DNA of 64,000 nt from positions 1 to 64,000 of the forward strand of contig NZ_NFJC01000006.1 of NCBI RefSeq assembly GCF_002159665.1, written 5' to 3'. The first letter of the stretch is position 1, and every line of letters begins with the position of its first letter. The position numbers and the translations under genes were made by a program. The stretch is from Desulfovibrio sp. An276 (GTDB taxonomy: Bacteria > Desulfobacterota > Desulfovibrionia > Desulfovibrionales > Desulfovibrionaceae). This document shows, in pieces, positions 10,125 through 64,000 of the stretch. Under the pieces are notes generated by a model. It was not told the DNA's origin. It made no database searches and saw only the letters and a list, made by a program, of their open reading frames with translations.

Positions 10125-10200
10125 GGGCAGTTAGCTCAGTTGGTAGAGCATCGCCTTCACACGGCGGGGGTCACAAGTTCAAGTCTTGTACTGCCCACCA
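10125..10200 (+). tRNA. tRNA-Val (CAC)
   Basis: A complete cloverleaf: acceptor GGGCAGT/ACTGCCC, D-stem GCTC/GAGC, anticodon stem TCGCC/GGCGG with loop TTCACAC (anticodon CAC), T-stem ACAAG/CTTGT with loop TTCAAGT, encoded CCA. It is followed 15 bases later by tRNA-Asp in one transcript. Confidence 0.97.
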
Positions 10201-10215
10201 CCCCATGTCTACCGC

Positions 10216-10292
<77 letters not shown>

Positions 10293-12984: not shown

Positions 12985-13389
12985 CTACGCTACATTTTGC
13001 CGGGTCAGCAACATCTTGAGCTTCTCCACGGCTGCAATGTCGGCAGGAAGCCAGGAAACCTCGTCCAGCTCTTCAGGGGCAAGCCAGCGGGCAGCCTCAT
13101 GCTCCAGAAGATGGACCTCACCGCTGCGTATGCTGGCCAAAAAGCAGTGCATGGTGATGTGAAAGGTCGGATAGTCATATTCGACTGTCGTGACCAGCTC
13201 CTCGGGGACGATATCCACACGAAGCTCTTCCCTGATTTCCCTGACAATGGCCTCAGCCGGACTTTCGCCCTGCTCGACCTTTCCTCCGGGAAATTCCCAG
13301 CCGTCCTTGAAGTCTCCGTACCCGCGCTGCGTGGCCAGAATGCGCCCGTTGTGGTGTATCATGGCTGCGGACACTGTTATGTGTTTCAT
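12985..13389 (-). CDS. Nudix hydrolase, MutT-like (deoxy)nucleoside triphosphate pyrophosphohydrolase
   Basis: The 134-residue protein has a Nudix box at residues 36-58 (GGKVEQGESPAEAIVREIREEL) with the metal-binding REIREE intact and the usual glycine after it replaced by Arg. MutT-type enzymes hydrolyse damaged or non-canonical nucleoside triphosphates. The gene starts two bases after the end of the helicase frame (13392), so both are one transcription unit. The pairing of this Nudix type with PLD-helicase-DUF3427 proteins is, to my knowledge, recurrent in other genomes, which suggests joint function. Confidence 0.88.
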   Translation of the reverse strand: MKHITVSAAMIHHNGRILATQRGYGDFKDGWEFPGGKVEQGESPAEAIVREIREELRVDIVPEELVTTVEYDYPTFHITMHCFLASIRSGEVHLLEHEAARWLAPEELDEVSWLPADIAAVEKLKMLLTRQNVA

Positions 13390-13391
13390 TG

Positions 13392-16321
13392 CTATTCTCC
13401 TGTGAGGTATTCGTATAGTCCCTGTTCAACCGCCTGCTGCAGTTTCCAGCGTATCTCGAAGGCCCTGCCTTTCCCGTCGCGCAGAGTGACATCGTGAGGG
13501 GCACCGCAGGCCTCTATTTCGCCCAGGAAATAAAAGCTCTTGGCCTCGTTGTCGTTCTTGTTCTTGCGCACGAAAAGATAGATTGTCGTGTCTTCATACG
13601 GATTCTGCCTTGTCATGCGCCTGGCGTCATCCGAGTCTGCCCGCCTGTTTGTCTTGGAGAGGAAGAGGAGCTCCTGCCTGGAAAGGAAGCGGTCTTCGTA
13701 GGGGATGGCGTCACTGGGCTTGTCGTAGTTGATGAATATGGGCAGGGTTTTTGTCCCGGCATGATAGAAGTAGCCGCCGATGTTTTGCGCGGGCATAAGC
13801 TTGTCCCAGTCCAGCAGCCTGCACACATCGTCGTAGGTGTAGGATGCACCCAGCGACAGCATGGTTGCCTTGTACCGTGCCGAGTAGAGCGCCTGCCAGC
13901 GCCTTTCCACGAATGTACAGAGCTCTTCGACCATATGTTTGAAGTTTGCATCCTCAAGGGCCTGCACAAAGCCCGGATCTGCCTCCCATTCTCCATTTGG
14001 AGACACTGCAATGAAGGTCATGCCCCATTGTCGCGCTCTGTCCTGCTCTGTGCGCTCAAAGTTGTTGGTCAGCATGTTTTCCACGGATTGCAGATGGGCC
14101 TGTGTGGCCTTGTAGCCACATGCAGCGGCAAGCCTGCGAACAAGGCTGGCTTTGAGATGGTGTTCTCCCTCTAGGATGGAACGCAGCACAATGGTTTCCG
14201 ACAGGCGGACTGCATTTCCGAGTTTTCTGGACAGCCAGGCAATGCGCCTTGTCGCGTCCTGTGTAAGCCGGATCTGATAGTTTCGTTCGACCCTAGCAAG
14301 AAAGCTGTGGTATGAGTAGCCTGTGCCTTTTTGCAAGAATTTCACTGCGTCGATTTGCCCGTGCTCCTCGTAGTCTGTCAGATCGGGCACACGGCCAAGC
14401 TTGTTTTTGAGGGCCAGATACGCTTCTCTCAGGAGCTCCATGGAACTGGTCTTTGCCCTGTCTATGGCCTGATAGATTCTTTCCTTGGCAATCCTGTCAA
14501 AATGGATGGAGGAAATGCCGGGAATGTGCCTGGATTCGACGCTTACGATGCGGCGCAGCCTGTCCTTCCTGTACGAGAGATCGCCGGAAAGGGCCACGGG
14601 GATAAGGTAGTTGTTGTCGTAGTCACCGATGAAGTCGAGGACGACCACAAAGTCCTTGCCTTCGTGCTTTCTCAGGCCGCGGCCGAGCTGCTGGACAAAA
14701 ATGATGGGGCTTTGGGTTGGGCGCAGCAACAGGATCTGATTGACTTCCGGCAGATCGACGCCTTCGTTGAAAATGTCCACGGTCACCAGATAGTCGAGGC
14801 GTTCTTCCCCATTGCCAGAGGTGAGCCTGCGCACTGCCTCGTCCCTGACATCCTGACTGTCGTCTCCGGAAAGGGCAAGGGCCTTGTACCCGTTCTCGTT
14901 GAGGCCCTGAGCAATGTCCCAAGCCTTTTGTCTGCTTGATGCAAAGACAAGTCCCTTGACTCTTTCCCCGCAGTATCCGTAGTATTTCGCCTTTTCTATG
15001 ATGTGTCGAATATATTCCTTTTTCTCAAGACGCATGAATTCAGATGGGGTATAAGCTCTGTATTGGCGATCTGTGTTCTGAACAGCAAGGTCACCAATTC
15101 CAAAATAATGGAAAGGACAGAGCAAATCGTTCTTCATTGCGTCCTGAAGACGGATTTCATAGACAATGTTGTAGTCGAACAGACCGTAGATGTCGAAGCC
15201 GTCCGGCCTGTCCGGACTGCCTGTCATGCCAAGCCAGAACCTGGGCTGGAAATGGGCCATGATTTTCTGATAGCTGGGCGCCCCGGCCCTGTGGACCTCG
15301 TCTATGATGATGAAATCGAAGTCCGAGACCGCAAAGTCGTTCAGTTTCCTGGCCAGGGTTTGCATGGTGGCAAAGACGTACCTTCTGTTCTCTTCATGAA
15401 CAGTTCCGGACATAATGCCGTACTCGCCCTTGTCGCCGCCAAGAACACGCATGAAGGAAGACCTGGCCTGCCTTGCAATTTGTTCCCTGTGCACACAAAG
15501 AGCAGGCGTCTGGGCTGAAAGTCGCGGACGGCAAAGGCGGCAGCATAGGTTTTGCCCGTGCCTGTGGCAGAGATGAGTAGGGCGCGTTTTTGTCCCAGCT
15601 TCCACGCTTTTGCAAGGCGTTCGAGGAAGGCCTGCTGCATGGAGTTGGGAACAGGCTTTTCGCGCACAGGCATGATCTTTTCACGCAGTTTTTCAAGAGC
15701 CCGCATTTGCACAAGACGGGCTTTGTATTCCTGTTCGTAGTCCGCGAGGATATCCCTGGCTGGACGTGTCTTTTCGTGATTCCAGAGTTCGTCGAATTCC
15801 TTGAGGACGCTTCTTGCAAACTCGCCTGTGCCAAGACAGACCAGACGCGTATTCCATTCCCTGCTCAGCGAAAGGGCCCTGTCCGTCAGATTGGAACTTC
15901 CAACGATCAGCCGCAGGGTTTCGTCCCTTTCGAAGATATAGCCCTTGGTGTGAAAGCCGTCGCTGTTGTCCGGGCCTGTGCGGTAGATGCGCAGTTCTAT
16001 GTTGCCGAGGCTCAAAAGCTTGTGCAGGGCTGCAGGCTGGGTGAATGACAGGTAGTCTGTGGTGAGGATGCGTCCGGGAACATTTCTTTCTTCGAGCTCC
16101 TTCAGAATCTGCAAAAGCGGTGTGATACCCCCGAGAGTGATGAAGGCCACGCTGATGGAAAAGCTCTCGCATCCGGAGAGCTCGCTTTCAAGGTCCTCGA
16201 GAACCTTGTGCTGCCCGGGAATGTTCGAAAGCAGGCTGACGCGCAAAAACTCGTCCGATGGATGTGTGACATCCATGAAGGACGTCTTGAGACTTTCTGT
16301 CAGCTGCCTTGGGTCTTCCAT
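13392..16321 (-). pseudogene. PLD nuclease-superfamily II helicase-DUF3427 protein, frameshifted
   Basis: Two overlapping frames encode one protein of about 976 residues broken by a single-base shift near 15495. The N-terminal part (start ATG 16321, AGGAG upstream) has a phospholipase D-type nuclease domain with HTKGYIF (His124, Lys126) and GSSNLT (Asn144), then Walker A ATGTGKT (252-258). The shift falls in helicase motif Ia: LLFV ends in one frame and VHREQIARQA continues in the other. The second part has DEVH, GMTGSP, QLGRGLRKHEGK and a C-terminal DUF3427 region. Restoring one base in the GTGTGCAC stretch rejoins the frames. It may be a recent mutation, a sequencing error or programmed frameshifting. 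The family is found in accessory loci and is suspected in defence or repair. Confidence 0.85.
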
Positions 16322-59726: not shown

Positions 59727-60605
59727 ATGTATCTCGCTTGTCTTACTATTTTTTGTCTCTCTATCTTTGCTGGAAATTCAATATTTTGTCGGGCGGCACT
59801 GGTGGCCTGCGACATGGGGCCTCTACAATATACTGGTGTGCGGGCGCTCTCTGCTGCGCTCATTCTGGCAATACTGTGCGGCATAAAGGTAATAAAACCT
59901 CTGCCGCAAGGTGAAGGCAATGTCTGGCGGGATGCCTGGCAACAGAGTTCTTGGACCGGAGCCTTGGGGCTTTTCATGTACATGGTTTGCTTCTCTACAG
60001 GCTACGTTGCCATGCCATCGGCTCCGGGAACACTCATTCTCAATATGAGTGTTCAGGTCTGTATGATTGGCTGGGGCATACTGCATGGTGTTTATCCCAA
60101 TAAAAAGCAGTATATTGGCTATGCCATAGCAACAGCTGGTCTCATTCTTCTCCTTTCTCCAGGGTTGACAGCCCCGCCGCTTCTCCATTCCCTTTTTATG
60201 GCAGGTAGCGGTTTTGCATGGGGGGTCTTTACTGTGGCTGGCAAAGACGCAAAATCAGCTGCTTTGGCTACTGCCGGGTGTTTTTGGCGGGCCGCTTTGC
60301 CAGGTCTTTTCTGTGTCATTGCTGGTTTTGTGTTTGAAGCACAACCACAGTCTATGGCTTGGATATTTGTCCTTGCAGGAGGATTGGCTTCATCCCTTGG
60401 ATATATACTTTGGTATGCCATAGTCCCCAGATATACTCTGATCAACTTATCAATCATTCAGCTGGCAATACCTGTGATTACAGCAATTCAGGGTTTTATT
60501 TTTCTTGAGGAAGAAGTAACTGTACGATTTGTGATTTCAACATGTCTGATTTTAGGAGGAATATACCAGACGATAAGAACTAATCATATACATATAAGAA
60601 AATAA
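59727..60605 (+). CDS. EamA-family (drug/metabolite transporter) permease
   Basis: The 292-residue protein has about ten hydrophobic segments in two halves, as in the EamA branch of the DMT superfamily, which exports or imports amino acids, sugars or other metabolites. The start is the ATG where the first membrane segment begins (MYLACLTIFCLSIF), with AAGGAAA 11 bases upstream. The preceding in-frame codons are not membrane-like. Its C-terminal third is more AT-rich than the neighbourhood. It is convergent with the TRAP genes. Confidence 0.82.
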   Translation: MYLACLTIFCLSIFAGNSIFCRAALVACDMGPLQYTGVRALSAALILAILCGIKVIKPLPQGEGNVWRDAWQQSSWTGALGLFMYMVCFSTGYVAMPSAPGTLILNMSVQVCMIGWGILHGVYPNKKQYIGYAIATAGLILLLSPGLTAPPLLHSLFMAGSGFAWGVFTVAGKDAKSAALATAGCFWRAALPGLFCVIAGFVFEAQPQSMAWIFVLAGGLASSLGYILWYAIVPRYTLINLSIIQLAIPVITAIQGFIFLEEEVTVRFVISTCLILGGIYQTIRTNHIHIRK

Positions 60606-60640
60606 ATTTTGTTAAAAATATTTATAATATAAATTAAATA

Positions 60641-60689
60641 AAGCCTGGCCATTTTTTTTCTTTTACACAAAGAGAAAATGATCAGGCTT
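60641..60689. terminator. bidirectional hairpin between EamA and dctM
   Basis: AAGCCTG and CAGGCTT outer arms with inner CATTTT/AAAATG and TTCTTT/AAAGA-type pairing form a long stem between convergent genes. Confidence 0.75.
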
Positions 60690-60718
60690 GTTTCTTATTC
60701 AAAAAAGTATTTGCAGTA

Positions 60719-62014
60719 CTATGCCAGTCCAAGTGCCTTGGGAAGGAATGTCGAAATCTCCGGAAAGATAATCAGTACAGCCAAGGCCATGATGGCAGCT
60801 ATAATCAGAGGAATGCAAGAGCGACTGATTTCCTCCATGGATAGCTTGCTTATGTGTGCTGCCACGTACAGATTGACTGCCACGGGTGGTGTGACCTGCC
60901 CAATGGCCAAGTTAACGGTCATGACAATGCCGAACCAGATTGGATCCCATCCAAAGTGTGCCATCAGGGGGATCATGAAGGGCAGAAAGACGTAGTAGAT
61001 GGAGATGGCGTCCAAGAGCATGCCTGCAATAAGCAGTATGATGTTGATTAAAAAGAGCAGAACATACTGGTTGTCGGAGAGCGACAACAGCAGTGAGGAG
61101 CCCTTTTCAATCAGACCAACTGTAGAAGCGACCCAGCTGAAGAGACCAGCGCAGGTCACCACAATCATAACAACTGCAGTGGCACGTACCGACTGACCGA
61201 AGATCTCCAACAGATCGTTCAGGCTGCGTATTGTCTTGTAGATAAAGATGCCGACAAAAAGTCCATAGAAAACAGTAACGGCAGCAGCTTCGGTCGGGGT
61301 AAAGATGCCGCCATAGATGCCGCCAAGGATAACCACAGGCGTCATGATGGCCCAGAAGGATTCCCTGAAAATCTGTCTTATGGGGCGGGTGCGCTTGACG
61401 CCGTGATAGCCGCGTCTGCGAGATATCAGAGCAACTGCGGCCAGAATGAAGCCAGCGACAACGAGGCCAGGCAAGAAGCCGGCTGCGAAAAGAGCCGGGA
61501 CAGAGACGTCGGTGATGCCCCCGTAGACAATAAAGGCAATGCTCGGAGGGATAACGATGGCGAGCCCGGATGTCACGGCAACTGTCGATGCGGCAAATGC
61601 CTTGTCGTATCCGGCATTGGCCATACCCGGGATCAGCACCAGTCCAAGGGCTGCCACAGTTGCAGGTCCGGAACCGCTGACAGCTCCCCAGAAGGTACAT
61701 ACGGCAACTGCTGCCATGGCCAGACCTCCGGTTCTTTCACCGACCAGGGCCTCCATGAGATTGATGATTCTGGCTGCAATACCGGCTTTTTCCATAATGT
61801 AGCCAGCCAAAATAAAGAACGGAATGGCCAAAAGCGGGAATTTGGCGATACCTGCAAAAAAGTTCAGGGAGAGCATGCCTATGCCCATATCCCATACCCA
61901 GACAATCGCCAGAGCGGCAAATCCCAAGGCCACGGCAATGGGTACTTTGATGGCAAGTGTACCAATAAAAACGACCATCATCCAGAAGGCGGGATCATTG
62001 AAAAGATTTTCCAT
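60719..62014 (-). CDS. dctM: TRAP transporter large permease (DctM)
   Basis: The 431-residue integral membrane protein has about 12 segments and the family marks AIPFFILAGYIME, SGSGPATVAALG, PPSIAFIVYGGIT and ANLAIGQVTPPVAVNLYV-like VNLAIGQVTPPVAVNLYV. With DctQ and the periplasmic DctP it imports a carboxylate or sulfonate-type solute using the sodium gradient. It starts three bases after the dctQ stop. Confidence 0.95.
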   Translation of the reverse strand: MENLFNDPAFWMMVVFIGTLAIKVPIAVALGFAALAIVWVWDMGIGMLSLNFFAGIAKFPLLAIPFFILAGYIMEKAGIAARIINLMEALVGERTGGLAMAAVAVCTFWGAVSGSGPATVAALGLVLIPGMANAGYDKAFAASTVAVTSGLAIVIPPSIAFIVYGGITDVSVPALFAAGFLPGLVVAGFILAAVALISRRRGYHGVKRTRPIRQIFRESFWAIMTPVVILGGIYGGIFTPTEAAAVTVFYGLFVGIFIYKTIRSLNDLLEIFGQSVRATAVVMIVVTCAGLFSWVASTVGLIEKGSSLLLSLSDNQYVLLFLINIILLIAGMLLDAISIYYVFLPFMIPLMAHFGWDPIWFGIVMTVNLAIGQVTPPVAVNLYVAAHISKLSMEEISRSCIPLIIAAIMALAVLIIFPEISTFLPKALGLA

Positions 62015-62017
62015 TTG

Positions 62018-62491
62018 TTATTTCTCCCCGCCTTTTTTGAGTGAGCTCACAAAATTTTGCAGGATGCGGAAAATAACCAGCAAGGAAAGGAGTGGTGTGG
62101 CGCAGGTGTAATACCAGACAGGAAGTTCCAAAGCCTCCGACGTTGCTTCCAGCTCGATTTCGTCCAGTACTTCCAGATATCCTGTCCAGACGAGAGACGC
62201 AAAAAAGATGATGCAGACAATGGTTCCCACTAGTCTGAACAGAAACTGCAACTTGCGCGGACATGCATCATAGAGCATGCTCATGCAGAGGTTGCTGCCA
62301 TCCCGAAAGGAGCGGGCAGTGCCAAGCAAAACAACCCAGACAAAAAAATTGACTGTCAATTCTTCTGTCCAAGCAAAGGAAAAAGATGTGCAGTAACGGA
62401 CTACGACGTTAATAAAAGCTACGGTTGCCATTACTGCCAGAAGTATTGCGCCGAGTATGTCCTCAAAACGCTCGTCAAGAAAGCGCCACAT
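62018..62491 (-). CDS. dctQ: TRAP transporter small permease (DctQ)
   Basis: The 157-residue protein has four membrane segments, RYCTSFSFAWTEELTVNFFVWVVLLGTA (the conserved W-x-EE region) and a charged C terminus. AAGGA eight bases before ATG 62491 sets the start. An upstream in-frame extension of 20 codons is unlikely. It lies 121 bases after dctP, from which it is separated by a terminator-like hairpin. Confidence 0.92.
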   Translation of the reverse strand: MWRFLDERFEDILGAILLAVMATVAFINVVVRYCTSFSFAWTEELTVNFFVWVVLLGTARSFRDGSNLCMSMLYDACPRKLQFLFRLVGTIVCIIFFASLVWTGYLEVLDEIELEATSEALELPVWYYTCATPLLSLLVIFRILQNFVSSLKKGGEK

Positions 62492-62562
62492 TGAATTAAA
62501 TCCTTGTCGACAAGAGTGATTACAGCGAGAATTCAGGTCTGAAAAATTCACTCTCTTCTAGC

Positions 62563-62595
62563 TGAAAAATCGGGCCGAAGTTTTTTTCGGCCCGA
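62563..62595 (-). terminator. intra-operonic terminator/attenuator between dctP and dctQ
   Basis: TCGGGCCGAA and TTCGGCCCGA form a perfect 10-bp stem. On the minus strand TTTTTC follows. It lies 18 bases after the dctP stop and would reduce readthrough into dctQM, giving excess binding protein. Confidence 0.88.
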
Positions 62596-62612
62596 CATAC
62601 TGATGATTGCTA

Positions 62613-63698
62613 CTAGCGAACAGAAGCCATGTCGGCTTCGGCAGCCTTCACAAGCTCTGCTCCAATCTTTTTGGTCCATTTGTCCCGGACGGACTTGGTA
62701 GCATCGAAAAACACCTTGATCTGTTCAGGAGTGAGTCTGGTCACTGTCATGCCATTGCTTTCCATGCAGCCGAACGGATCGCTGATTTCGGGCTTGGCAT
62801 TGAGGCTTTCGAGATAGCTCAACGCCCAACCGTCATCAATGCCAACTCGGGACAATGCCTTGCTGTACTTTTCGCTGTCTGCCACGCAAGACATGATGAT
62901 CTTCTGGTCTTCCTCGCTGAAGCTCTTCCAGACCTTGGGATTCACGGAGACAAGCAGGGGATCGATGATGTAGTGCCAGTCACAGTGATACTTCTGATAC
63001 ATCCAAATCTTGATTGGGATGTTGATGCCGTTGGTGGGGTTTTCCTGACCATCAACGATACCCTGCTGGAAGCCTGTGATAGCTTCGGACCAGTTCATGT
63101 TAATGGGATTGGCACCCAGAGCCTTGAATGTCTCGATAAAGATCGGGCTGCCGACAACACGGATCTTGAGACCCGAGAGATCTTCGGGCTTGGTAATGGG
63201 CCCCTTGTTGGTGGTCAGTTCACGGAAACCATTTTCAGCCCAGCCTAAGACGCGTACGCCCTTTTTTTCCACCGCAGCCTTCATCATAGTGCCAGCCTTG
63301 CCTGCAAGGATGGCGTCCATGGCTTTGTAGGGATTAGGCTGGGAGCCAATGAAGAAGGGCAGGGCTGGCAAGTTGAGTTCCTTGATCTGAGGCGACCAGT
63401 TGATGGTCGATGCAAAGGCAAAATCAATGCTGCCCTGACGCAGGAGCAAGAATTCGTTGGTTTGTTTGCCAGCAAAGAGCTGACCAGAGCAGTATACTTT
63501 TATATTAATGCGGCCGTTGGTGCGCTCGCGGACCAGATCCGCAAAGTAAGCAGCAGAAAGCCCCCAGCCTGTGGTGGGGCCGGGAACGACACTGAGTTTG
63601 TACTCTTCTTTATACTTTGCTGCATTGGCTGGCATGGCAATGGCCAGACAGAGGCAGGCACAGGCCACACTCAGCAAGATATGTGAAAGACGCGACAT
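62613..63698 (-). CDS. dctP: TRAP transporter substrate-binding protein (DctP)
   Basis: The 361-residue precursor has a signal peptide (residues 1-26, ending AMPANA). It has the DctP fold with KVYCSGQLFAGKQTNEFLLLRQGSIDFAFAS and the conserved ligand-binding loop GLKIRVVGSPIFIETFKALGANPINMNWSEAITGFQQGIVDGQENP. The Arg in KIRV contacts the substrate carboxylate in known members. AGGAGG precedes the ATG. The solute is unknown. Confidence 0.95.
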   Translation of the reverse strand: MSRLSHILLSVACACLCLAIAMPANAAKYKEEYKLSVVPGPTTGWGLSAAYFADLVRERTNGRINIKVYCSGQLFAGKQTNEFLLLRQGSIDFAFASTINWSPQIKELNLPALPFFIGSQPNPYKAMDAILAGKAGTMMKAAVEKKGVRVLGWAENGFRELTTNKGPITKPEDLSGLKIRVVGSPIFIETFKALGANPINMNWSEAITGFQQGIVDGQENPTNGINIPIKIWMYQKYHCDWHYIIDPLLVSVNPKVWKSFSEEDQKIIMSCVADSEKYSKALSRVGIDDGWALSYLESLNAKPEISDPFGCMESNGMTVTRLTPEQIKVFFDATKSVRDKWTKKIGAELVKAAEADMASVR

Positions 63699-63732
63699 TC
63701 AAAGTCCTCCTCGAGTGATAAAATGGGAAGTA

Positions 63733-63747
63733 CGGTAAGAAATACCG
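63733..63747 (-). promoter_or_regulatory. candidate operator overlapping the dctP transcription start
   Basis: CGGTA-n5-TACCG is a perfect inverted repeat that begins 5 bases downstream of the proposed -10 box, a position typical for a repressor site. Confidence 0.5.
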
Positions 63748-63751
63748 AATT

Positions 63752-63780
63752 ATTATGTGAAAGATGCAAAAAAAATTCAA
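63752..63780 (-). promoter_or_regulatory. candidate dctP promoter
   Basis: On the minus strand TTGAAT, a 17-base T-rich spacer and CATAAT give a start about 45 bases before the dctP ATG. Confidence 0.55.
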
Positions 63781-64000
63781 GATCTTAAAGAGGCTGCATG
63801 ATTTTGGACCACTGCGGGGTGGCACATGAACACGGCAGGAGCATAGAATTCTGCCCTATAGCTGCTTGTCACAATTTTCGGCGCCACAACGCTTTGTCCA
63901 TATGTCGCCTCTGCACGCTCACCCTGCATGAAAGAGTGACTTGCCTGTGCTTTACCGAGAGTGGTAAATCGCAGTTGGTTCTTCTGGTATAGACGTCAAA

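What the first reader, a model, noticed from the sequence alone, without database searches (positions are those of the whole stretch)
12985..16321. Nudix hydrolase coupled to a PLD nuclease-helicase-DUF3427 protein: candidate defence or repair module
The two genes are two bases apart on one strand and stand between ordinary housekeeping genes. The large protein joins a phospholipase D-type nuclease (HTK at 124-126, Asn144), a superfamily II helicase and DUF3427. The Nudix partner has an intact REIREE core but an Arg in place of the usual box glycine. A nuclease-helicase with a nucleotide-cleaning enzyme would suit sensing of foreign DNA plus control of nucleotide pools. I recall this pairing in other genomes, but I know of no settled mechanism.
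Basis: partly seen in the sequence, partly recalled or inferred. Interest (0 to 1): 0.75.

Follow-up and report, generated by a model that had tools for sequence, protein, structure and literature searches.

The report
Methyl-DNA cutter with modified-nucleotide cleaner
Many bacteria and archaea that carry an enzyme which cuts DNA bearing methylated cytosine keep, right beside its gene, a small enzyme whose best-studied relative destroys methylated-cytosine building blocks, which suggests that these defence systems act on the nucleotide pool as well as on DNA.

Summary
In detail: a Nudix gene (12985-13389) lies two bases downstream of a PLD-helicase-DUF3427 gene (13392-16321), which is broken by one frame change near 15.49 kb. 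The large protein is not an unknown: both pieces match SauUSI, the Type IV enzyme that cuts 5mC/5hmC DNA (PDB 7CLG, 1.6e-131 and 1e-40). What I did not find in print is the partner. A Nudix gene of this subfamily adjoins the nuclease in 73 of 80 SauUSI-like loci (query-biased); in evenly drawn genomes in 8 of 8 (Bacteroidota) and 11 of 14 (Bacillota), in several gene orders. S. aureus SauUSI itself has it (PDB 5X1X). Within the subfamily lies B. fragilis 3GWY, which hydrolyses 5-Me-dCTP and 5-hydroxymethyl-dCTP at about 5e6 /M/s (published), matching the two bases SauUSI attacks. Such Nudix genes also adjoin McrA-like HNH and, once, SRA-HNH nucleases; three loci add a MazG-like enzyme, one checked as DCTPP1-like. 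Best reading: a pool-cleaning partner that removes modified dCTPs, most likely so the host does not build them into its own DNA and cut itself. A pool-level attack on modified phages is the main rival. Substrate and role are inferred for the window's copy.

The parts
15341..16321 (-). N piece of the SauUSI-type gene: PLD nuclease domain (H124, K126, N144) and start of the motor (GTGKT, K257)
   Evidence: Pfam PLDc_2 and ResIII; PDB 7CLG 1e-40, residues 10-277; PADLOC mREase_IV; motif positions. Reading frame is real only to about 15490.
13392..15605 (-). C piece of the SauUSI-type gene: rest of the motor (DEVH), Helicase_C and DUF3427 (SRA-fold target domain in SauUSI)
   Evidence: Pfam; PDB 7CLG 1.6e-131, residues 254-952; PADLOC mREase_IV 441.9 bits. 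Reading frame is real from about 15500 downwards.
15490..15500 (-). place where the reading frame changes and the large gene is broken
   Evidence: ORF list and alignment of both pieces with the intact relative L312
12985..13389 (-). Nudix hydrolase of the NudG/3GWY kind, intact, catalytic residues and Asp117 present
   Evidence: Pfam NUDIX; PDB hits 5X1X, 3GWY, MutT2, NudG; residues; model pLDDT 96.2 and structural matches

Best explanation
[quoted passage not shown] The SauUSI-type protein binds 5mC/5hmC in foreign DNA by its C-terminal SRA-fold domain, moves along it with its ATPase and cuts it with its PLD nuclease (shown for SauUSI; inferred here, and this copy is broken). The Nudix protein hydrolyses the matching free precursors, 5-methyl-dCTP and 5-hydroxymethyl-dCTP, to monophosphates (shown for the relative 3GWY; inferred here). 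Most likely role: it keeps modified cytosine, whether released from shredded foreign DNA, made by a modified phage or salvaged from outside, out of the host's own new DNA, which would otherwise become a target of the neighbouring nuclease (inferred). It would be a metabolic safeguard against self-cutting in a system that has no methylase to mark self.
For: SauUSI identity. Adjacency 73 of 80, 8 of 8 and 11 of 14. In 296 Bacteroidota genomes 20 of the 26 subfamily Nudix hits of at least 130 bits lie beside a DUF3427 or SRA-HNH nuclease. Prototype S. aureus SauUSI has the Nudix one base upstream. 3GWY, in a 41-row clade otherwise of 39 SauUSI-linked and one type-C-linked sequence, hydrolyses 5-Me-dCTP and 5-HOMe-dCTP. 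Same Nudix kind beside McrA-like HNH and once SRA-HNH. MazG-like genes in three SauUSI loci, one matching DCTPP1. Structural matches led by MutT2, with a 5mdCTP complex among them.
Against: No activity was measured for any linked Nudix except 3GWY, whose own gene neighbours I could not see. The window's Nudix lies in another clade than 3GWY. Housekeeping relatives have the same Asp117 (11 of 11), so the residue does not mark the linkage. Of five SauUSI-type genomes without an adjacent Nudix only two have a subfamily member elsewhere, so it is not indispensable. SauUSI alone works in vitro and as a clone in E. coli, though E. coli has NudG. In the window the nuclease is broken but the Nudix intact, which self-protection does not require.
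Confidence: 0.5

Rival explanations
1. Pool-level attack: the Nudix destroys the 5hm-dCTP or 5m-dCTP that modified phages make, starving them of their base or forcing unmodified DNA on them, while the nuclease destroys what has been built: two layers of one defence.
For: Same adjacency and substrate evidence; the pair also rides on viral contigs with an McrA-like nuclease; a 2025 review suggests the 5hmdCTP pool as a possible cue for phage detection (PMC12707154, passage).
Against: Removing modified precursors would make phage DNA less visible to the partner nuclease, so the two arms would work against each other unless other restriction takes over.
Confidence: 0.27
2. General pool sanitation: the Nudix is an ordinary 8-oxo-dGTP or oxidised-CTP cleaner kept near the nuclease because DNA breakage and stress go together.
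For: NCBIfam's top hit is MutT, 95.0 bits against a cut-off of 97.9; related genes stand in housekeeping settings.
Against: Linkage is to modification-dependent nucleases in several builds; Asp117 in place of MutT's Asn; 3GWY is about 50-fold less active on 5-OH-dCTP than on 5-Me-dCTP.
Confidence: 0.11
3. Regulatory partner: the Nudix protein binds the nuclease or removes a nucleotide that inhibits or activates it, and catalysis on free dCTP analogues is incidental.
For: Nuclease and Nudix distances covary (r = 0.78 over 77 pairs).
Against: Host descent was not removed from that correlation; the Nudix goes with nucleases of different build; SauUSI is active alone.
Confidence: 0.09
4. Chance neighbours in this window, without functional link.
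For: DUF3427 is found in none of the 11 other same-genus genomes listed, so one transfer may have brought both genes here.
Against: The eight best-scoring subfamily Nudix genes in 296 Bacteroidota genomes are exactly the neighbours of the eight SauUSI-type genes; several gene orders.
Confidence: 0.02

Closest known systems
[quoted passage not shown] PADLOC mREase_IV PDLC03658)
   Same: Same domain order and motifs over almost the whole length; the S. aureus gene also has the Nudix neighbour
   Different: The window's copy is broken; its Nudix lies downstream, not upstream; the enzyme has been described as a single gene in the texts I could search
3GWY / Q5LBB1, 5-methyl-(d)CTP and 5-hydroxymethyl-dCTP hydrolase of Bacteroides fragilis
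   Same: Same subfamily, 42% identity in the structural alignment, Asp at the same place
   Different: Falls in another clade of linked Nudix than the window's; its own gene neighbours were not seen
NudG (Orf135) and MutT2, CTP/5-methyl-dCTP Nudix hydrolases
   Same: Fold, catalytic residues and Asp117; Z 20.2 and 21.3
   Different: E. coli nudG has no nuclease neighbour; NudG scores 104.2 bits against the linked profile, below every linked SauUSI member; the NCBIfam NudG cut-off is not met
PDC-S07, PADLOC phage-defence candidate
   Same: Only PADLOC hit of the window's Nudix, 164.5 bits
   Different: The model also matches E. coli MutT (130.7 bits) and NudG (147.3 bits), so it does not define the linked group

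Membership tests
SauUSI (Type IV restriction) | PLD nuclease, SF2 motor and DUF3427/SRA-type target domain in that order | tested here: met
   both pieces together cover 10-952 of 953 residues of 7CLG
SauUSI (Type IV restriction) | PLD catalytic HxK and Asn; Walker A and DExH motifs | tested here: met
   Window H124, N144, K257 and DEVH; S. aureus H119, N139, K255 and DEAH
SauUSI (Type IV restriction) | One intact reading frame | tested here: not met
   Frame change at about 15490-15500: a broken gene of the family, not a working member
SauUSI (Type IV restriction) | No methylase partner beside it | tested here: met
   Three flanking genes scanned are Fe-S protein, TrmO and sugar transferase; C5-methylase matches lie on other contigs
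SauUSI (Type IV restriction) | ATP-dependent cutting of 5mC/5hmC DNA | not testable with these tools
   Needs protein
MutT (8-oxo-dGTP diphosphatase) | NCBIfam TIGR00586 above its cut-off | tested here: not met
   95.0 bits against 97.9
MutT (8-oxo-dGTP diphosphatase) | Asn at the base-recognition position (role recalled) | tested here: not met
   Asp117 in the window; Asn in E. coli MutT
NudG (NCBIfam PRK10546) | Score above cut-off | tested here: not met
   89.8 bits against 156
5-Me-dCTP hydrolases of the 3GWY kind | Nudix catalytic residues and Asp117 | tested here: met
   99 of 99 SauUSI-linked sequences including the window's
5-Me-dCTP hydrolases of the 3GWY kind | Same clade as 3GWY | tested here: inconclusive
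   3GWY and the window's copy sit in two different SauUSI-linked clades of a poorly resolved tree
5-Me-dCTP hydrolases of the 3GWY kind | Hydrolysis of 5-methyl- and 5-hydroxymethyl-dCTP | not testable with these tools
   Needs protein
PDC-S07 (PADLOC candidate) | Specific match to the model | tested here: inconclusive
   164.5 bits, but MutT 130.7 and NudG 147.3 also match

The most novel reading that the evidence does not exclude
Modification-dependent restriction is widely a two-level system: nucleases of different build (SauUSI-type, McrA-like HNH, SRA-HNH) are paired with a dedicated 5-modified-dCTP hydrolase (a Nudix, sometimes plus a MazG-like enzyme), so that self and non-self are kept apart in the nucleotide pool as well as in DNA. 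Methylase-free Type IV systems would then have an antidote of their own, a pool cleaner in place of a methylase.
Probability: 0.5. Interest if true: 0.82.

Novelty: new variant of a known kind. Interest (0 to 1): 0.68.

Why it matters
SauUSI is described as a major barrier to gene transfer in S. aureus and, in the texts I could search, is treated as a single gene; it was shown active as a clone in E. coli, which has NudG of its own. If its conserved neighbour is a 5-modified-dCTP hydrolase, Type IV systems have an overlooked second component, the question of how methylase-free restriction avoids self-damage becomes testable with two purified enzymes and one set of laboratory strains, and a published activity without a known purpose (3GWY on 5-Me-dCTP and 5-HOMe-dCTP) gains a likely one.

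Tried and rejected
Unknown-nuclease reading: rejected, both pieces match SauUSI over almost its full length. Odd Nudix box as a sign of lost function: rejected, the position varies in relatives and is Asp in the active 3GWY. Defence island: not seen; five neighbouring proteins have no PADLOC match. PDC-S07 as proof of defence: rejected as unspecific. Nudix-nuclease fusion: none found in the ORF sets scanned; the only two Nudix ORFs over 195 aa (L221 with 200 aa, L292 with 205 aa) are separate ORFs from the nuclease ORFs, and a suspected fusion in L338 had no Nudix hit. Type B (about 1050 aa) DUF3427 proteins as a negative control: failed as a control, since they carry the Nudix too: own phylum 11 of 15 fetched (18 listed besides the window); Bacteroidota 9 of 27 fetched, 5 of them not evaluable (37 listed); Bacillota 6 of 23 fetched, 4 not evaluable (28 listed). 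General SRA-HNH link: weak, 1 of 6 Bacteroidota genomes, none in one Janthinobacterium record. McrA-like HNH on plasmids: Nudix in 1 of 10 fetched, of 23 records. B. fragilis neighbourhood: not reached; 384 genomes of the order gave three hits of 49-54% identity, two of them beside DUF3427 nucleases in the fetched regions; the third genome is that of L037, already in the 80 set with its Nudix next door, but its fetched region L335 showed none, so that region was off the locus. Viral-contig scan with the window's large protein: no relative. Phage records with the McrA-like protein: none.

Rows dropped or choices made before a count: MutY-type hits (about 92-106 bits, mostly 350-396 aa frames) and others under 110 bits are outside the 57. 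L221 (gene cut by contig end, Nudix 1562 bp away) counts as not adjacent in 11 of 14. The survey centres G395 and G396 came from SauUSI-linked loci; without them the counts are 7 of 7 and 10 of 13. L228 is the L068 locus, and L224 and L230 lie on contigs of the same length as those of L056 and L089, so the surveys overlap the 80 set. L036 was scored 'downstream' by the script because a second nuclease ORF lies before it; I count it as upstream. 'Adjacent' means within 400 bp in the 80 set (71 of 73 within 113 bp) and within 450 bp.
Full report
WHAT IS THERE. On the minus strand lie a large gene (16321 down to 13392) and, two bases further, a Nudix gene (13389 to 12985). The large gene is in two frames: a PLD nuclease plus the first part of a helicase-type motor in one, the rest of the motor plus DUF3427 in the other, meeting at about 15490-15500. 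Three flanking genes scanned are an Fe-S protein, TrmO and a sugar transferase; none of five neighbours matches a PADLOC family. The genome has one DUF3427 and C5-methylase matches on two other contigs, one nearly full-length and one partial. In its phylum 19 of 395 genomes have a DUF3427 match, and none of the 11 other same-genus genomes listed, so the module is probably acquired.

THE LARGE GENE IS A BROKEN SauUSI. Both pieces, taken apart, match PDB 7CLG (SauUSI) at 1.6e-131 and 1e-40, and together cover PADLOC's mREase_IV model of 953 positions almost end to end. SauUSI recognises 5mC and 5hmC with an SRA-fold domain at its C-terminus, moves on ATP and shreds DNA (PMC7913695 and PMC3874153, passages seen). 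A human-faecal scaffold (L312, recorded as 'Bacteriophage sp.', unverified, probably bacterial) carries an intact relative, 50% identical to both pieces, with the same gene order and a Nudix 73% identical to the window's. Intact copies thus exist. Of five such scaffolds fetched (of 18 records), four have the Nudix behind a PLD-helicase-DUF3427 nuclease and one behind a Schlafen-type helicase.

THE PAIRING IS REAL AND WIDE. In 73 of 80 a Nudix ORF adjoins the nuclease gene: 62 upstream on the same strand, 4 downstream, 7 downstream and convergent. Of the seven without, four are cut by a contig end (L039, L058, L075, L091), L052 has only 450 bp on one side, L064 lacks its N-terminal part, and L090 lacks the Nudix within 0.7 and 2.9 kb. 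One other Nudix hit, a weak one, lay elsewhere in all flanks. Of the four plasmid loci with annotation or clear ORFs at the top of the plasmid search (L020-L023) all four have it; L024 and L025 do not. That sample leans towards the query, which was itself Nudix-linked, so I surveyed evenly drawn genomes. In 296 Bacteroidota genomes there are 8 SauUSI-type genes and all 8 have the Nudix next door; in 299 Bacillota genomes there are 14, of which 11 have it, two lack it, and one is cut by a contig end with a Nudix 1.6 kb away. Run the other way, of 57 Nudix hits of this subfamily (at least 110 bits) in those Bacteroidota, the eight best-scoring are exactly the SauUSI neighbours, and 20 of the 26 with at least 130 bits lie beside a DUF3427 or SRA-HNH nuclease; the other six were in no such setting. 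A related group of about 1050-aa DUF3427 nucleases ('type B'; one member checked is PADLOC mREase_IV PDLC03659) has the Nudix in part: 11 of 15, 9 of 27 and 6 of 23 loci fetched in three phyla, the last two including 5 and 4 that could not be judged. Across 77 pairs nuclease and Nudix distances covary (r = 0.78; 0 of 2000 permutations as high), though host descent was not removed.

THE PROTOTYPE HAS IT TOO. In an S. aureus record the SauUSI ORF is preceded, one base away, by a Nudix gene whose product equals the chain of PDB 5X1X over the aligned residues. The SauUSI mechanism paper has no occurrence of mutT, Nudix, pyrophosph or operon, and a 2025 review of restriction has none of Nudix. Library searches for SauUSI with Nudix (one paper, passages seen, unrelated), type IV restriction with Nudix (two papers, one seen in passages, unrelated, the other in the listing only) and a wider two-of-six search (83 papers, 25 listed, listing only) showed none that describes the link. 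Xu 2011 was not held; preprints and most subscription papers are not in the library. PADLOC lists a Nudix candidate, PDC-S07; a search for its origin paper found none, six papers hold the label (listing; one seen in passages), and the model is unspecific.

WHAT THE NUDIX DOES. The best solved relatives by sequence are 5X1X, 3GWY and MutT2. 3GWY is Q5LBB1 of B. fragilis, with kcat/Km 4.8e6 for 5-Me-dCTP, 4.4e6 for 5-HOMe-dCTP and 8.5e4 per M per s for 5-OH-dCTP (PMC5158307, passages). It scores 167.9 bits against the profile of linked Nudix, within their range (143-201) and above the 11 housekeeping relatives (121-145). In the tree it lies in a 41-row clade (SH-aLRT 95) with 39 SauUSI-linked and one type-C-linked sequence (135 columns, quick method, 48 of 101 inner branches under 80). 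The window's copy lies in a second linked clade (13 rows, 99) and S. aureus's in a third, near housekeeping and type B sequences; well-supported branches force at least four changes of the SauUSI label, so the link has been gained or lost more than once. All 99 SauUSI-linked sequences (some duplicates between the two samples) keep the catalytic glutamates and Asp117, where E. coli MutT has Asn; the 11 housekeeping relatives also have Asp, so this fits a cytosine-type subfamily (role of the residue recalled) and does not mark the linkage. A confident model of the window's Nudix (pLDDT 96.2) matches MutT2 complexes best (Z 21.3 to 21.2; the 5mdCTP complex 1.7 A over 126 residues), then NudG (20.2), 3GWY (19.3; 2.5 A over 127) and MutT (18.7; 1.8 A over 125); these differences are modest and fold alone shows no function.

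FURTHER PAIRINGS. Thirteen IMG/VR contigs with a 3GWY-like Nudix, one close group, were found by searching with 3GWY. Right behind the Nudix, 12 of them carry (11 intact, one broken; the thirteenth contig ends there) a 271-278 aa HNH protein; the one tested matches EcoKMcrA, ScoMcrA and TagI in the PDB, mainly by its HNH part, with a weak SRA hit. A Priestia plasmid has the same order, but it is 1 of 10 such plasmid loci fetched. One Bacteroidota genome has the Nudix overlapping an SRA-HNH gene, 1 of 6 with SRA. Three of 86 SauUSI-like loci (L022, L023, L034) have a MazG-like gene right behind the nuclease; the one in L023 matches a bacterial pyrophosphatase best and then human and mouse dCTP pyrophosphatase 1, for which 5-methyl-dCTP hydrolysis is published (PMC10742078, passages). 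Two unrelated pyrophosphohydrolase folds and nucleases of several builds meeting on one modified base is, to me, the strongest sign that the shared theme is 5-modified cytosine.

MECHANISM. Shown elsewhere: SauUSI cuts 5mC/5hmC DNA; 3GWY hydrolyses the matching triphosphates. Shown here: the genes travel together. Inferred: the window's Nudix has that substrate, and it protects the host from building in modified cytosine that the nuclease would then attack. The rival, an attack on phage precursors, fits the same data; I rank it second because it would hide the phage from the partner nuclease. SauUSI was shown active as a clone in E. coli (PMC3874153), a species with its own NudG, so the nuclease without any such hydrolase may not have been examined. 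Against strict need: of five Nudix-less SauUSI genomes searched, only two have a subfamily Nudix elsewhere.

VERDICT. For the window itself: a broken member of a known family with an intact partner. For the field: a recurrent two-gene arrangement that I did not find described, with a specific and cheap test.

Noticed in passing
L023:7426-9168 and L315:647-2644: Schlafen-group-3 helicase proteins (PF09848; L315's is PADLOC PDC-S41, L023's also has a GIY-YIG hit) lie in the same gene row as the Nudix; in L315 the helicase stands where the nuclease usually is, in a stretch with Vsr and Z1 genes.
   Followed up: partly
L022:7259-7570, L023:7088-7408, L034:3585-3959: MazG-like gene directly behind the SauUSI-type gene, in addition to the Nudix.
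   Followed up: partly
G000:C9:1749-2942 and G000:C13:5618-5893: The window's genome has C5-methylase matches of its own; a working 5mC-dependent nuclease with an overlapping target would be harmful there, which fits the broken gene.
   Followed up: no
L036 and L233: Two SauUSI-like ORFs in one locus, with the Nudix between them in L036.
   Followed up: no
L106 (NZ_CP077890.1): An S. aureus 'plasmid' record of 30 kb that holds the SauUSI gene in several ORFs and the same Nudix twice in opposite directions; it looks like an assembly artefact.
   Followed up: no
window 10125-10292: tRNA-Val and tRNA-Asp genes about 2.7 kb beyond the Nudix end of the module.
   Followed up: no
window 60000-64000: G+C falls to 0.48-0.49 from about 0.55; the ORFs there look like a TRAP-type transporter set (by eye).
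   Followed up: no
L316:3201-5972: A third, shorter (923 aa) PLD-helicase-DUF3427 type with a Nudix right behind it; its score to the SauUSI profile (563 bits) lies between SauUSI-type and type B.
   Followed up: partly
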